From positions 1 through 46,598 of the forward strand of contig CASFUZ010000010.1 of the NCBI GenBank assembly GCA_949298065.1: a stretch of 46,598 bases of DNA. Reading direction: 5' to 3'. Position 1 is the stretch's first letter. Each line of letters starts with the position of its first letter. Origin of the DNA: an uncultured Pseudomonadota bacterium. GTDB lineage: Bacteria; Pseudomonadota; Alphaproteobacteria; RF32; CAG-239. Below are positions 14,256 through 36,377 of this stretch, piece by piece. A program made the translations under genes and the position numbers. A model generated the notes under the pieces. It ran no database searches, was not told where the DNA came from, and saw only the letters and a list, made by a program, of their open reading frames with translations.

Positions 14256-16707
14256 ATTTCTTTGCGGTGATGATTTTTAGGGCATCTTCTAAGGTTAAAT
14301 CCTTATCTTTATATTCTCTCGGAATGGCATAATTGTTTTTGCTCCACTTTAGATATGGGCCATAACGTCCTGAATTTAAAGTGATATCCTGTTTGTCTTT
14401 GGGGTGTTGTCCCAAAACTTTTCCAGCAGGTTTTTCGGCAACGCCTTTTAAAATCTCCTCAGCTCTCTCCAAGGTAATATTAAAAATATTATCTGCGCCG
14501 GTTAGGGATTTTGACTTATTCCCTTGCTTCAAATATTGGCCGAATTTGCCAATATTTGCCTCAATACCGTTTCCTAATTGTTTGGGCAAAGTCAATAAGG
14601 TAGTCGCTTGTTCTAAAGTAATTTCTTCAGGTTTTAAAAACTTTGGCAAAGAAGAACGCTTGGGTTTTTCGGTTGTTGCGGTTGCATCTTCGCCAAGCTG
14701 GACATAGTAGCCATAAGGTCCTTTTTTGAGATAAATTTTTAGGCCGTTAAGTTCACCGAGCTCTTTATCTTCCGGATTTGTCGGGCGCGGGGTGTCGTTC
14801 ATTTCCTCATCTTTGACATCCGTCAAAGGTTTGGTATATTTGCATTCGGGATAATTTGAACAACCCAAAAAGGCACCAAACTTACCAAGCTTGACCGACA
14901 AACGTCCTTTGCCGCATTCGGGGCAAATACGCGGGTCGGAGCCATCTTCACGCGGAGGAAAGAGGTGGTAAGACAATACTTCATCAATCTTTTCAATAAC
15001 TTCGCTGACTTGCAAGGGTTTTACGGCATCAATATTTTTGATGAACTTAACCCAGAAGCCGCCAAGAAGCTTTTTCCATTCCATTTCGCCGGCGGAGACA
15101 TCATCCAGATATTCTTCCAGTTGGGCGGTGAAGTCATATTCAACGTACTTCTTAAAGAAGTTTTCCAAAAAGACGGTTACGATGCGACCTCTGTCTTCCG
15201 GAATGAAACGCAGTTTCTCAACACGAACATACTTACGCTCCTGCAAAACGGCAATGATGGAAGCGTAAGTTGACGGACGACCGATGCCTAATTCTTCCAG
15301 TTTTTTGACTAAGCTTGCTTCGGTAAAGCGCGGTGGCGGCGTGGTAAAATGTTGCTCGGGGATGATGTCCCCCTTGCTTACATTTTCGCCATTTTCAACA
15401 TTTGGCAAAATGCGGTTTTCATCATCTTCATCACTATCGTCTTTGCTTTCCTGATAGAGCTTGAGGAAGCCGTCAAAGTCAATGACTTGTCCTGTTGCAC
15501 GCAAAATGATTTTTTCATCGGCAGAAGAAGAATCAATTACAACTTTATCCAAAACGGCCGGATTCATTTGGCAAGCGACAGTGCGTTTCCATATCAGCTC
15601 ATAGAGCTTATGAGCATCAGAATCAAGCTTGGCTTCCAATTTCTTTGGCGTGTCGGTTACGTGAGCCGGACGAATCGCCTCGTGTGCTTCTTGAGCGTTC
15701 TTGGATTTGGTCTTGTATTCTTTGGCAACTTTAGGCAGATAAGCCTCGCCGAAGTATTTTACAATAACCTCGCGGCAAGCCGTAATAGCTTCTTGTGAGA
15801 GGTTAACCGCATCGGTACGCATATAAGTGATATAACCATCTTCGTACAGCTTTTGAGCTACTTGCATGGTTTTCTTCGCGCTAAACCTTAACTTTCTTGC
15901 AGCCTCTTGTTGCAGGGTTGAGGTTGTGAACGGCGGAGCCGGATAGCGATTGGCTTTTTTGCGCTCAACATTGGCAATGTGAAATTCCTGAGCCTCAATC
16001 TTGGCTTTGGCTTCTAAGGCTTTGGCTTCGGTGTTGAGGTCAAATTTTTCAAGCTTTTTGCCATCTAAGGTTATTAAGTGTGAGCGAATCAGCGCCTGAG
16101 TTTTGGTGATGAGGTCTACATCAACCGTCCAATATTCTTCGGGTTTGAATTTTTCAATTTCGTTTTCGCGGTCGCAAATCAGGCGCAGGGCAACGGATTG
16201 GACACGTCCTGCCGATTTTGAGCCGGGGAGTTTGCGCCACAAAACCGGTGAAAGCGTGAAACCAACCAAATAGTCCAATGCGCGGCGCGCCATATAGGCC
16301 GAAACCAGATTATTGTCAATCTGACGCGGGTTTTTGATGGCTTCGGTAACTGCCGATTTGGTGATTTCGTGAAAGACGACACGTTCAATTTTTTTGTCTT
16401 TGATTTTTTTGCGTGCGGTCAGTTCTTCCAAAATATGCCATGCGATTGCTTCTCCCTCTCTATCCGGGTCGGATGCGAGGACAATCGTATCACAGTCTTT
16501 GAGGGCGGTTATGATATCATTGAGGCGTTTTTTGCCGCCGGAGCTTAGCTCCCAGGTCATGGCAAAGTTGTCATCCGGATTGACGGAGCCGTCTTTGCTC
16601 GGAAGATCTCGGATATGACCGAAGCTGGCCAGAACTTTGTAATCTGAACCTAAGTATTTGTTGATGGTTTTGGCTTTGGCAGGGGACTCAACGATAACTA
16701 ACTTCAT
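14254..16707 (-). CDS. topA: DNA topoisomerase I
   Basis: Type IA topoisomerase that relaxes negative supercoils through a 5'-phosphotyrosine link. The 817-residue protein has the Toprim domain at the N-terminus (VESPAKAKTI, then DPDREGEAIAW), catalytic Tyr295 in GYITYMRTDAV, and the GRPSTYAS motif. One C-terminal four-Cys zinc element lies near residues 594-625 (CPECGKG, CSNYPEC), followed by Lys-rich repeats with GRYGPYLK. E. coli TopA has several zinc ribbons; a single one plus Topo C-repeats is usual in Alphaproteobacteria. Its ATG overlaps the dprA stop (ATGA), so plsY, dprA and topA form one unit. Confidence is high. Confidence 0.98.
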   Translation of the reverse strand: MKLVIVESPAKAKTINKYLGSDYKVLASFGHIRDLPSKDGSVNPDDNFAMTWELSSGGKKRLNDIITALKDCDTIVLASDPDREGEAIAWHILEELTARKKIKDKKIERVVFHEITKSAVTEAIKNPRQIDNNLVSAYMARRALDYLVGFTLSPVLWRKLPGSKSAGRVQSVALRLICDRENEIEKFKPEEYWTVDVDLITKTQALIRSHLITLDGKKLEKFDLNTEAKALEAKAKIEAQEFHIANVERKKANRYPAPPFTTSTLQQEAARKLRFSAKKTMQVAQKLYEDGYITYMRTDAVNLSQEAITACREVIVKYFGEAYLPKVAKEYKTKSKNAQEAHEAIRPAHVTDTPKKLEAKLDSDAHKLYELIWKRTVACQMNPAVLDKVVIDSSSADEKIILRATGQVIDFDGFLKLYQESKDDSDEDDENRILPNVENGENVSKGDIIPEQHFTTPPPRFTEASLVKKLEELGIGRPSTYASIIAVLQERKYVRVEKLRFIPEDRGRIVTVFLENFFKKYVEYDFTAQLEEYLDDVSAGEMEWKKLLGGFWVKFIKNIDAVKPLQVSEVIEKIDEVLSYHLFPPREDGSDPRICPECGKGRLSVKLGKFGAFLGCSNYPECKYTKPLTDVKDEEMNDTPRPTNPEDKELGELNGLKIYLKKGPYGYYVQLGEDATATTEKPKRSSLPKFLKPEEITLEQATTLLTLPKQLGNGIEANIGKFGQYLKQGNKSKSLTGADNIFNITLERAEEILKGVAEKPAGKVLGQHPKDKQDITLNSGRYGPYLKWSKNNYAIPREYKDKDLTLEDALKIITAKK

Positions 16708-32904: not shown

Positions 32905-32942
32905 TCCCCTTTGTTCCAATAAAGATAGAGGGGAATTTTTTT
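32905..32942 (+). terminator. Rho-independent terminator after the small-gene pair
   Basis: TCCCCT at 32905-32910 pairs with AGGGGA at 32929-32934; an AA bulge-rich lower stem and seven T at 32936-32942 follow. The stem is short, so confidence is moderate. Confidence 0.65.
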
Positions 32943-32974: not shown

Positions 32975-33003
32975 TTGACTCTTTTTACAAAAGAGATTAA
33001 GAT
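32975..33003 (+). promoter_or_regulatory. Candidate sigma70 promoter for the cysteine-rich secreted protein gene
   Basis: TTGACT at 32975-32980, a 17-base spacer and TAAGAT at 32998-33003 would give a leader of about 145 bases before the ATG at 33157. That leader holds two consecutive hairpins. Confidence 0.5.
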
Positions 33004-33027
33004 AAGGGTTAATAGGTGTGTTGTTGA

Positions 33028-33063
33028 CCGGAAGATAAGTTCCGGAAGGTCGTGTTAACGACC
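33028..33063 (+). promoter_or_regulatory. Two tandem hairpins in the leader of the cysteine-rich protein gene
   Basis: CCGGAA (33028-33033) pairs with TTCCGG (33040-33045) around a 6-base loop; GGTCGT (33048-33053) pairs with ACGACC (33058-33063) around GTTA. No T-run follows, so they are not plain terminators. They could stabilise the mRNA or control translation. Function unknown. Confidence 0.4.
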
Positions 33064-33156
33064 TTGTTCTGTTGGGCTTCTTTGTCTTATTCCGTTTCTT
33101 ACAGCATGCCTTCTGCTCATGCAGGCTTTGTCTTTGTCAACTGTCGGAGGTGTGCC

Positions 33157-34770
33157 ATGTCTTACTCTCGTTTTCTGCTCGCTTCGGCTCTGGTGCCGGC
33201 GGCTCTCTTTGCCTTTCCGTCTTCACCCGAAGCGGCAGCGTTAAGTCATGGTCACGCTTCCACAGCCGATTGCACACATACACACACATCCACCCTATCG
33301 GCAGAGCCTGCATCTCGTTTTATTGACATGAACCGTGCTTTCAAAACGGCAGCTGTCTGCTTTTTTGGGTACGGTGACTGCGACACGAATGAGGATTATG
33401 AGATTGATCCTGAATTACAATGTTTGAATGAAGGATTCAGCAAGCAGAACTGCAATTCCGTACAGACGATTGATGGTGTTTGTCCGTATCATTCTGCCTA
33501 TGGACTTGGCTGCAAATGTGTCTCTAATCTGATAACCTGTCCGACCGGACAGGTTGGCGTTGGGGAGAGCTGCGGCGGCAAGTATGCCTCCTGTCAGTGC
33601 GACCCGAAACTGGTCAGTTGTGCTTCCAATCAGGTTGGTCAGGGCGCTTCCTGCGGAGGTAAATATCAGTCCTGTGCCTGCAAATCGGAATATGTTTACA
33701 ATTCTTCCAACTGTAAGTCGCCAAGGTCATTATCGGGTGCAAGCTGTGGGGGCAAGTATACCGGCTGTTCCTGTCCGTCTGGTGTAAGCGCAGGAACTTA
33801 TGGCTGTGCCGAATATTACGGTTCACCATGTTCGTCGGTTTGCAAAAAGGCTTATACGGATAACTGCCATAAACGTACGGATAACAACTCGGCGGTTTAC
33901 GGCTGTATGAAATATTGGTCGGACTGTTCTTCCAAATGCGAAACGCCTTATAAGGACAACTGCAGGAACCGAACGGCGGTCAGTACGCCTTATGGCTGTC
34001 AGACTTACTGGAGCGACTGCTCGACCAAGTGTCAAAAGGCTTATACGGACAACTGTAGAAACAGAACAGCCGTTGCCAGAAATTGTCCTGCCAATGCAAC
34101 CTGTACTTATTTTTCCGACTGTTTGTCTAAAATCAGTGGCTGGAGTTGCAATTCAGGATATGAAAAAAATGGTGGTATTTGTGTGGCAGTGTCAGAGGCA
34201 TGTGAGGTTGGCAGTATTTATTACAGTGATGATACTTGCAGTTCAGCAAGTAATTATAACGCCGGCAAGACTGTTTTAGGTGTTGTGGTTGAGTTTGATG
34301 TTGAAATTAACAAAGGACATGTTATGGCTCACAAACCTGTATCACCATGCGGTGGAGCTAGCACCGGTTTGCGATGGTCTAGTGAAGAAAAGAATGTAGA
34401 GGGTTTGGTTGGTATGGGCAGTGAATTTGAAGCCAGTGGCGATTTTGCCAGTTGTGCAAACACGAATGTTCTGATTAATGATAAACAAGCTGATCATCCA
34501 GCAGCTGAAGCCGCAAGAAATTATTTACATGGTTCGAAAACATGGTGTTTGCCTGCAGCAGGAGTTGTACAATGTATATATAAGCAAAAAGCAACCATCG
34601 ATAACTCATTAAGAAAGATTAATGGAGACACAACCCTATGGAATACCCAAATATGGTCATCTACGGCATCATCTAGTCATGAGGCTTGGAACGGTTATTG
34701 GGTATCTCCATACCTACAATCCAACTATAAGACAGACAGTAAGTGTGTTTATCCTGTATTTGAATTTTAG
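33157..34770 (+). CDS. Secreted cysteine-rich tandem-repeat protein, probable surface or adhesin-like protein
   Basis: A 537-residue exported protein; start set at 33157 because GGAGG lies 6 bases upstream. A signal peptide of about 27 residues ends EAA. Two families of Cys-rich repeats follow: three units with G-x-SCGGKYxSCxC (33539-33775), then three units of YGCxxYWSDCSxKC with DNCxxRT (starting 33799, 33898 and 33991). The last 200 residues are Cys-poor and end in WSSTASSSHEAWNGYW, which recalls DUF1566-type C-termini (weak). So many paired Cys imply disulfides and periplasmic or surface location. Bases 33060-34140 are visibly richer in G+C than flanking genes, while the 3' third is AT-rich, so the gene looks mosaic. 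The frame is also open back to 33052 and encodes a second signal-like stretch there. Function unknown; surface binding is inference. Confidence 0.75.
   Translation: MSYSRFLLASALVPAALFAFPSSPEAAALSHGHASTADCTHTHTSTLSAEPASRFIDMNRAFKTAAVCFFGYGDCDTNEDYEIDPELQCLNEGFSKQNCNSVQTIDGVCPYHSAYGLGCKCVSNLITCPTGQVGVGESCGGKYASCQCDPKLVSCASNQVGQGASCGGKYQSCACKSEYVYNSSNCKSPRSLSGASCGGKYTGCSCPSGVSAGTYGCAEYYGSPCSSVCKKAYTDNCHKRTDNNSAVYGCMKYWSDCSSKCETPYKDNCRNRTAVSTPYGCQTYWSDCSTKCQKAYTDNCRNRTAVARNCPANATCTYFSDCLSKISGWSCNSGYEKNGGICVAVSEACEVGSIYYSDDTCSSASNYNAGKTVLGVVVEFDVEINKGHVMAHKPVSPCGGASTGLRWSSEEKNVEGLVGMGSEFEASGDFASCANTNVLINDKQADHPAAEAARNYLHGSKTWCLPAAGVVQCIYKQKATIDNSLRKINGDTTLWNTQIWSSTASSSHEAWNGYWVSPYLQSNYKTDSKCVYPVFEF
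33539..34080 (+). repeat. Two sets of coding tandem repeats in the cysteine-rich protein gene
   Basis: Three degenerate units coding G-x-SCGGKYxSC lie at 33539-33775, and three units of about 93-99 bases coding YGC-YWSDCS-KC-DNC-RT lie at 33799-34080. Units differ at many silent sites, so expansion is not recent. Confidence 0.75.
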
Positions 34771-34778
34771 GAATGATG

Positions 34779-36377
34779 TCAGAGTAAATCTCCATGTACC
34801 TGTTCGCGGGTTTTGCGCAAGACAATCTTTGGAAAATCCTCGCTGACTTTGTTTAGATGCCAAGCATTGCGCGCTAAGAAGACGGTTGCCCCGTCATGGT
34901 CTTCGGCAATGCTGATTTGGTTGGTGTCTAAAAACTTCTTCATAACAGTTTTATCATCACACTCAACCCAACGCGCGGTATAATATTGTGTCGGTTCAAA
35001 GGCAACGGGAATATTAAACTCCGTGCGGATGCGGTCCGCCATAACCTCAAACTGCAGAGCTCCGACAACGCCGACAATCCATTCGGCACCGACAACCGGT
35101 TTGAAGACGCTGGCGCCGCCTTCTTCGGCAATCTGCTGCAGGGCGCTGCCGAGGTGTTTGGATTTAAGCGGATCCAGCGCACGGACGCTTTTCAGAAGTT
35201 CCGGCGCAAAACTCGGAATGCCGGTGAAGTGCAGCTTTTCACCTTCGGTCAGGGTGTCGCCGATGCGAAGCTGTCCGTGGTTGGGGATGCCGATGATATC
35301 TCCGGCATAAGCATCTTCCGCAAGCTCGCGTTCTTGTGCCAAAAACATAACAGGGGTCGGAACTTTCAAACCTTTTCCCGTGCGAACCTGAGTTAAGGTC
35401 ATGCCGCGTTTGAAGTGGCCGGAACAAATGCGCATAAAAGCAATACGGTCGCGGTGCTTGGGGTCCATATTGGCCTGTATTTTGAAAACGAATCCGGTAA
35501 CTTTGTTTTCTTCCGGCTTAACGGTTCTTTCCGCGGCGGGTTGTTCGCGCGGGGTGGGTGCCAGATTATGCAAACCCTCCAGCACCTCTTTAACACCAAA
35601 GTTGTTAATGGCGCTGCCAAAGAAGACAGGAGTTAAAGCACCTGCCAAATATAATTCTTTATCAAAGGCCGGACAAAGCTCTCTGACCATCGTTACATCT
35701 TCACGCAGCTTGGCTACGGCATGTGCCGGCAATAAGCTGTCTAATTTGGGGTCGTCCAAACCTTTGCAGGTTTCAATCGTAGAGTTGATAAGCGATTTGC
35801 TGCCGGTTTTGTTCATCAAAATCAGTTGGTCGTTTAAGAGGTCATAACAACCCAAAAAATCTTTGCCCATACCAATAGGCCAGCTTGCAGGTGTTACATC
35901 CAAAGCCAAAGTTTTTTCAATATCATCCAGCAGGCAGAAAGGATCTTGCCCTTCGCGGTCTAACTTGTTGATGAAAGTGATAATCGGAACATTGCGCAAA
36001 CGGCAAACTTCAAAAAGTTTTTTGGTTTGGCTTTCAATACCTTTTGCCGAATCCAAAACCATAACGGCCGAATCGACCGCTGTTAAAACACGATAGGTGT
36101 CTTCAGAGAAGTCTTCGTGGCCCGGTGTATCAAGCAGATTAAACGTAATGTTTTCATATTCAAAATTCATTACCGAAGAGGCAACGGAAATACCGCGTTC
36201 TTGCTCAACTTTCATCCAGTCTGAATGGGCATGGCGGTTTTCGCCGCGCGCTTTGACGGCACCTGCTTGTTGGATGGCACCGCCGAAAAGCAAAAGTTTT
36301 TCGGTTAGGGTGGTTTTACCCGCGTCAGGGTGCGAGATAATCGCAAAGGTTTTTCTCGGATTTATGGTATTATTCAT
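34779..36377 (-). CDS. prfC: Peptide chain release factor 3
   Basis: GTPase that removes RF1/RF2 from the ribosome after peptide release. The 532-residue protein has the P-loop HPDAGKTT (about 16-23), the switch-II DTPGHEDFS, and NKLD for guanine specificity, then EF-G-like domains II and III. Length is typical (E. coli 529). It lies 24 bases downstream of the TPR lipoprotein gene on the same strand and is probably cotranscribed. It ends 8 bases from the convergent cysteine-rich gene with no clear terminator between them, so antisense read-through is possible. Confidence 0.97.
   Translation of the reverse strand: MNNTINPRKTFAIISHPDAGKTTLTEKLLLFGGAIQQAGAVKARGENRHAHSDWMKVEQERGISVASSVMNFEYENITFNLLDTPGHEDFSEDTYRVLTAVDSAVMVLDSAKGIESQTKKLFEVCRLRNVPIITFINKLDREGQDPFCLLDDIEKTLALDVTPASWPIGMGKDFLGCYDLLNDQLILMNKTGSKSLINSTIETCKGLDDPKLDSLLPAHAVAKLREDVTMVRELCPAFDKELYLAGALTPVFFGSAINNFGVKEVLEGLHNLAPTPREQPAAERTVKPEENKVTGFVFKIQANMDPKHRDRIAFMRICSGHFKRGMTLTQVRTGKGLKVPTPVMFLAQERELAEDAYAGDIIGIPNHGQLRIGDTLTEGEKLHFTGIPSFAPELLKSVRALDPLKSKHLGSALQQIAEEGGASVFKPVVGAEWIVGVVGALQFEVMADRIRTEFNIPVAFEPTQYYTARWVECDDKTVMKKFLDTNQISIAEDHDGATVFLARNAWHLNKVSEDFPKIVLRKTREQVHGDLL

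What the first reader, a model, noticed from the sequence alone, without database searches (positions are those of the whole stretch)
32975..34770. Cysteine-rich repeat protein with mosaic composition and a doubled signal-like N-terminus
Two unrelated Cys-rich repeat families are joined to a Cys-poor C-terminal domain. The 5' two thirds is G+C-richer than all neighbours and the 3' third AT-rich. The open frame upstream of the chosen start (33052-33156) encodes a second stretch resembling a signal peptide, and a leader with two hairpins precedes it. This looks like a modular, horizontally built surface protein, perhaps one of a family in which N-terminal parts are swapped.
Basis: seen in the sequence. 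Interest (0 to 1): 0.62.

Follow-up and report, generated by a model that had tools for sequence, protein, structure and literature searches.

The report
Shuffled adhesin family with RNA leader
This gene belongs to a large family of secreted, disulfide-rich, probably adhesive proteins in uncultured gut alphaproteobacteria; its front end (promoter, an RNA leader that may act as a switch, and the export signal), its stalk and its lectin-like tip are swapped between gene copies and between species.

Summary
The real start is ATG 33157 (SD GGAGG 33146). P0001 (537 aa, 44 Cys) carries a signal peptide, a conserved VCFxGxGDC module, three SCGGKY repeats, three YGC..DNC repeats, an EGF-like linker and a C-type-lectin-like head (VIA Z 17.6 to a Bacteroides fimbrial protein, 12.9 to the Legionella Lcl adhesin head). 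The genome (CAG-239-type genus, gut Alphaproteobacteria) has about 20 related loci; 14 of its 72 contig ends break inside them. Parts are shared separately: the leader plus signal peptide is 92-98% identical to a non-syntenic gene of another species, and identity collapses right after VCFxGxGDC. The locus carries an import from a high-GC congener: fourfold-site difference is 3%, against 50-60% in flanking genes, and prfC holds a 300-bp import tract. The leader precedes only this family. Its middle segment can pair with the mRNA 5' end or with the Shine-Dalgarno sequence, making it a candidate translation switch. A sister genus has A12-A14 tracts in the same promoters, suggesting phase variation. 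Best reading: an Lcl-like modular adhesin family diversified by recombination. Surface location, ligand and switching are inferred.

The parts
32905..32934 (+). terminator-like hairpin behind the upstream 63-aa gene
   Evidence: consensus match
32975..33003 (+). promoter -35 TTGACT, -10 TAAGAT
   Evidence: same spacing to GGTGTG in the family
33014..33024 (+). P1 5' strand at the mRNA 5' end, AGGUGUGUUGU (resembles the SD region)
33101..33111 (+). P1 3' strand ACAGCAUGCCU; overlaps the anti-SD element
33104..33113 (+). anti-SD element GCAUGCCUUC, P2 5' strand
33112..33125 (+). second small hairpin UCUGCUCAUGCAGG
33146..33155 (+). SD region GGAGGUGUGC, P2 3' strand
33157..34770 (+). CDS P0001, 537 aa
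33157..33240 (+). signal peptide (aa 1-28, by inspection)
   Evidence: sequence; 96% aa and 3% fourfold difference to G002
33328..33381 (+). conserved module ending VCFFGYGDC (aa 58-75), where identity to G002:C24 ends
33382..33783 (+). N-terminal Cys domain and three SCGGKY repeats (aa 76-209)
33784..34116 (+). three YGC..DNC repeats (aa 210-320)
34057..34194 (+). EGF-like linker (aa 301-346), weak fold match
34192..34767 (+). C-type-lectin-like head, AT-rich (aa 346-537)
35028..35327 (-). tract inside prfC imported from a G002-like donor

Best explanation
The gene is one member of a multigene family of exported, disulfide-rich, probably adhesive proteins with an anchor-stalk-head plan: signal peptide and conserved N-terminal module, a Cys-rich stalk of repeat modules, and an exchangeable head, here with a C-type-lectin-like fold. 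The family diversifies by homologous recombination between copies and between related species, with crossovers in shared stretches such as VCFxGxGDC, so that 5' units (promoter, leader RNA, signal peptide), stalks and heads are recombined. This copy appears to have entered the low-GC lineage from a high-GC congener by recombination that also left a 300-bp tract in prfC; the heads of the two orthologues have since become unrelated in sequence except for their fold type. Shown: sharing and chimerism, import signature, family-dedicated leader, predicted fold of the head. Inferred: surface display, adhesion, selection for ligand or antigen variation, and control of expression by a leader in which one element pairs either with the mRNA 5' end (SD free) or with the SD (SD blocked).
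For: About 20 loci in the genome and families in all six other species of the genus. Chimeras: C24b 15091-15558 is 92.5% to C4c, C24b 15533-16044 is 92.2% to C26, while C26 13251-13624 is 89.8% to C4b. Leader plus signal peptide 92-98% to non-syntenic G002:C24, then background. Fourfold-site difference 0.03 in aa 1-45, against 0.60 (comEC) and 0.50 (prfC); import tract in prfC. The site is empty in G005 and holds an unrelated gene in G001 and G004. Of 43 leader hits in the genus, 41 precede a gene with the family N-terminus; the other two precede short ORFs of 18 and 40 aa. Head: Z 17.6 to 4eps, 12.9 to the Lcl head, 9.9 to Bdellovibrio Bd2740, 8.1 to InvE. P1 and P2 are stronger in native than in permuted combinations; P2 in type A is 97% paired against at most 62% when slid, and 1 of 500 shuffles reaches its covariation score. 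In sister genus g10 A12-A14 tracts sit in the promoters; in g8 two copies are frameshifted in a CA-rich repeat with the rest of the frame intact.
Against: No localisation, binding or expression data. The Lcl_C match of P0001 itself is sub-threshold (E 0.017), and many paralogues have other C-termini. A C-type-lectin-like fold alone shows no ligand. The 7-bp core of P1 is invariant in type A, so it shows no covariation there. The permutation tests do not correct for relatedness. Direction of the import is inferred from GC and identity. All genomes are draft assemblies, partly metagenomic.
Confidence: 0.72

Rival explanations
1. The family is adhesive or antigenic and changes mainly by slow birth-and-death and inter-species transfer, not by an active variation system; the leader is only an mRNA-stabilising 5' hairpin.
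For: No site-specific recombinase, reverse transcriptase or silent-cassette arrangement was found; the window's leader strongly prefers P1 (by 7.7 kcal/mol); P1's core is invariant.
Against: Contig ends share exactly 99 nt between copies, so identical stretches exist within one genome; P2 covaries; sister genera carry slippage-prone tracts.
Confidence: 0.35
2. The proteins are secreted or periplasmic binding or structural proteins (for example metal- or glycan-binding) with no adhesive role.
For: Only a signal peptide supports export; no lipobox, sorting signal or outer-membrane anchor was recognised by eye.
Against: The head resembles heads of bacterial adhesins; heads vary and are exchanged while the N-terminus is kept, as expected for an exposed tip.
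Confidence: 0.2
3. The head is a target of a diversity-generating retroelement.
For: C-type-lectin-like heads are usual DGR targets (general knowledge).
Against: No reverse transcriptase (PF00078) in the genome, estimated 100% complete.
Confidence: 0.03
4. The gene has a real second signal-like N-terminus translated from an upstream start.
For: The frame is open from 33052 here.
Against: Not open in most leaders; changes are non-synonymous; a strong SD lies before 33157.
Confidence: 0.03

Closest known systems
Legionella collagen-like adhesin Lcl (PMC11162425; 8q4e)
   Same: Anchor-stalk-head plan with a DUF1566/Lcl_C head of C-type-lectin-like fold (Z 12.9).
   Different: Stalk is disulfide-rich, not collagen-like; many recombining copies with a dedicated leader; head sequence below the Lcl_C threshold.
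Bacteroides ovatus fimbrial protein BACOVA_04982 (4eps)
   Same: Best match of the head by profile (E 0.0033) and by fold (Z 17.6).
   Different: Only the C-terminal part matches; the Cys-rich stalk does not.
Anaplasma Msp2/P44 (Alphaproteobacteria; PMC2789410, PMC11946796)
   Same: Multigene surface-protein family diversified by recombination between copies.
   Different: Msp2/P44 uses one expression site and silent donor copies; here many loci carry their own promoter, leader and start.
Neisseria PorA- and Opa-type phase-variable surface proteins (general knowledge)
   Same: Sister genera have A12-A14 next to the -35 of the promoters and out-of-frame copies in a simple repeat.
   Different: The window's own genus lacks the tract and has the structured leader instead.
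Bistable SD/anti-SD translational switches (general class, includes many riboswitches)
   Same: One element can pair with an upstream competitor or with the SD.
   Different: No conserved aptamer core seen, the inner hairpin is variable, no Rfam match; no ligand known.

Membership tests
Lcl_C / DUF1566 domain (PF07603) | Profile match above the gathering score | tested here: not met
   P0001 15.9 bits, cut-off 34.9; 9 of 37 family members match at E 0.01 or better
Lcl_C / DUF1566 domain (PF07603) | C-type-lectin-like fold of the Lcl head | tested here: met
   8q4e Z 12.9, rmsd 2.3, 120 residues aligned, on a predicted model
Lcl adhesin | Collagen-like repeat stalk | tested here: not met
   stalk consists of SCGGKY and YGC..DNC repeats
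Lcl adhesin | Binds sulphated glycosaminoglycans on host cells | not testable with these tools
   needs a binding assay
Recombining multigene family | Chimeric copies with parts from different paralogues | tested here: met
   C24b/C26/C4c/C4b; G002:C24
Anaplasma Msp2-type system | Single expression site with silent donor copies | tested here: not met
   9 leader-bearing family loci in G000
Phase-variable promoter (homopolymer in the -35/-10 spacer) | Homopolymeric tract between -35 and -10 | tested here: not met
   absent in the window and its genus; 19 copies in sister genome G015 have it
DGR target protein | DGR reverse transcriptase in the genome | tested here: not met
   no PF00078 match in G000
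Known structured RNA family | Rfam match of the leader | tested here: not met
   only one chance-level hit, outside the leader
Bistable SD/anti-SD switch | Two mutually exclusive helices kept across homologues | tested here: inconclusive
   P2 supported; P1 supported by the permutation test but invariant in its core within type A
Bistable SD/anti-SD switch | Expression changes when one helix is disrupted | not testable with these tools
   needs reporter and probing experiments

The most novel reading that the evidence does not exclude
The leader is a new class of aptamer-less bistable mRNA switch: the mRNA 5' end mimics the Shine-Dalgarno sequence and competes with it for one anti-SD element, and the unit of promoter, switch and signal peptide travels as an exchangeable 5' cassette that sets the expression of swapped adhesin bodies. 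A sister genus meets the same need with poly-A phase-variable promoters.
Probability: 0.3. Interest if true: 0.78.

Novelty: new variant of a known kind. Interest (0 to 1): 0.62.

Why it matters
If right, common but uncultured gut alphaproteobacteria keep a large, recombining repertoire of exported lectin-headed proteins, a way to vary host or microbe attachment that was not found described in the papers searched. The repeats break draft assemblies, so the repertoire is hidden in most of them. The shared leader is a new RNA motif candidate that can be tested directly, and the contrast between a structured leader in one genus and poly-A promoters in its sister offers a natural comparison of two ways of controlling the same family.

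Tried and rejected
DGR: no reverse transcriptase. Mobile element, phage or plasmid origin: no match to P0001 in phages, plasmids or viral contigs. Rfam: nothing in the leader. Leader peptide or upstream signal peptide: rejected by frame and substitution pattern. Stalk fold: no PDB match of weight, best Z 4.0 over 42 residues of the EGF-like end; this does not prove a new fold. NCBIfam: no match. MAFFT on mixed or type C leaders misregistered the anti-SD element, so the pair count with controls was done on type A only; the cross-type table chooses the best register and is biased towards pairing. The count of contig ends in family genes (14 of 72) was read from coordinates, and the number expected (about 1-2) is my estimate from family length.

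Full report
What is there. The window lies in a 1.62-Mb, 36-contig genome; related records are Azospirillum sp. CAG:239 and other uncultured gut Alphaproteobacteria. The gene starts at ATG 33157 behind SD GGAGG 33146 and encodes 537 aa with 44 Cys. A promoter-like TTGACT-17-TAAGAT lies at 32975-33003. The frame upstream, read as a second signal peptide, is an untranslated leader: it is open for 35 or more codons in only 9 of 43 homologous leaders, and the four changed codons against the orthologue are all non-synonymous.

Architecture. Signal peptide (by inspection), a His/Thr-rich linker, VCFFGYGDC, a Cys domain with three SCGGKY repeats, three YGC..DNC repeats, an EGF-like linker and a Cys-poorer end. 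An AlphaFold2 model has pLDDT 81.5 (first 60 residues poor; head mostly above 90), and the stalk alone 92.7. The head (345-537) is C-type-lectin-like: Z 17.6 to 4eps, 12.9 to the Legionella Lcl head, 9.9 to Bdellovibrio Bd2740, 8.1 to InvE. A family profile also finds 4eps by sequence (E 0.0033). Pfam Lcl_C is sub-threshold in P0001 (E 0.017) but matches 9 of 37 relatives. The stalk has no clear PDB relative.

A family, with parts shared separately. G000 has about 20 loci that match one or another part, and all six other species of the genus have such families. Fourteen of 72 contig ends fall inside family genes, and three pairs of ends share exactly 99 nt, the mark of an assembly graph broken at identical sequence. 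Chimerism is direct: C24b is 92.5% identical to C4c over leader and signal peptide and 92.2% identical to C26 over the body, and the two segments meet near KLAGVCFMG; C26 in turn has a 5' end 89.8% identical to C4b. C-terminal parts differ between members: lectin-like, long Cys-poor extensions that look beta-helical to me (not tested), or short Cys-rich ends.

Import at this locus. Between the species G000 and G002 the orthologous gene is 93-98% identical in leader and signal peptide, 65-96% in the stalk, and about 40-55% in the head. Fourfold-site differences are 0.03 for aa 1-45, against 0.60 in comEC and 0.50 in prfC. In prfC, 35028-35327 is 94-95% identical to G002 (77-87% elsewhere) but only 84-88% to G001 and G005 (93-98% over most of the gene), with GC 0.57-0.59 against 0.50-0.53 in those relatives. 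G002, G003 and G006 have GC-rich prfC (0.54), the G000 group about 0.465. The simplest reading is recombination from a high-GC congener. The site is empty in G005 and holds an unrelated gene in G001 and G004. G002:C24, at another place, shares leader and signal peptide at 92-98% and then nothing.

The leader. A sequence model of the last 65 nt finds 43 copies in the genus; 41 precede a gene with the family N-terminus, the other two short ORFs. GGTGTG lies 36-40 nt behind TTGAC in most leaders, hence near the expected transcription start. In each leader a middle element can pair with this 5' end (P1) or with the SD region (P2); the two are mutually exclusive. Mean duplex energy for native combinations is -14.5 (P1) and -14.4 (P2), against -12.2 for both when permuted (p 0.0002 or less; within type 0.0002 and 0.003). 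On 14 type A leaders P2 is 97% paired, at most 62% when slid, and 1 of 500 shuffles reaches its covariation score. P1 in type A pairs well in its core but does not covary; its variable part changes in step between types (biased by register choice). Forced P1 and P2 folds have nearly equal mean energies over the set (-34.3 and -34.8), but the window's own leader prefers P1 by 7.7, so it should be mostly on. These tests do not correct for relatedness.

Sister genera. In G015 (another genus) a homologous family has the same SD-proximal leader end, and all copies carry A12-A14 between TTGTTG and the -10 region, an arrangement typical of phase-variable promoters. In G027, two of three copies are out of frame in a CA-rich simple repeat while the rest of the frame is intact. 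Tract lengths come from draft assemblies.

Judgement. The plan resembles Lcl: anchor, stalk, glycan-binding head (PMC11162425). It is not Lcl: the stalk is not collagen-like. Recombination between copies recalls Anaplasma Msp2/P44, but there is no single expression site. I rate it a new variant of a known kind, with a leader that may be new in kind. Function on the surface is inference.

Noticed in passing
35028-35327: Tract inside prfC, GC 0.57-0.59, much closer to the high-GC congener G002 than the rest of the gene; looks like a recombination import.
   Followed up: yes
L063:2379-2960, L062:2213-2575: About 135-bp repeat units, tandem and dispersed, upstream of several family genes in G000; not upstream of the window gene.
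   Followed up: partly
L098 (G005), L097 (G001), L099 (G004): The site between the 63-aa gene and prfC is empty in G005 and holds a 521-548 aa membrane gene, sulfatase-like by eye, in G001 and G004.
   Followed up: partly
L180, L181 (G027): Family copies frameshifted in a CA-rich simple repeat just behind the signal peptide, with the remaining frame intact.
   Followed up: partly
L162-L179 (G015): A12-A14 tracts in the promoters of a sister-genus family; many copies end at contig ends.
   Followed up: partly
L066:3215-4033, L061:2-763: Separate short proteins with a lectin-like domain and, where the start is present, their own signal peptide, in near-tandem pairs at contig ends.
   Followed up: no
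101-694: Serine recombinase-like gene at the window start, next to a cluster of sugar and ketoacyl-synthase-like genes (by eye).
   Followed up: no
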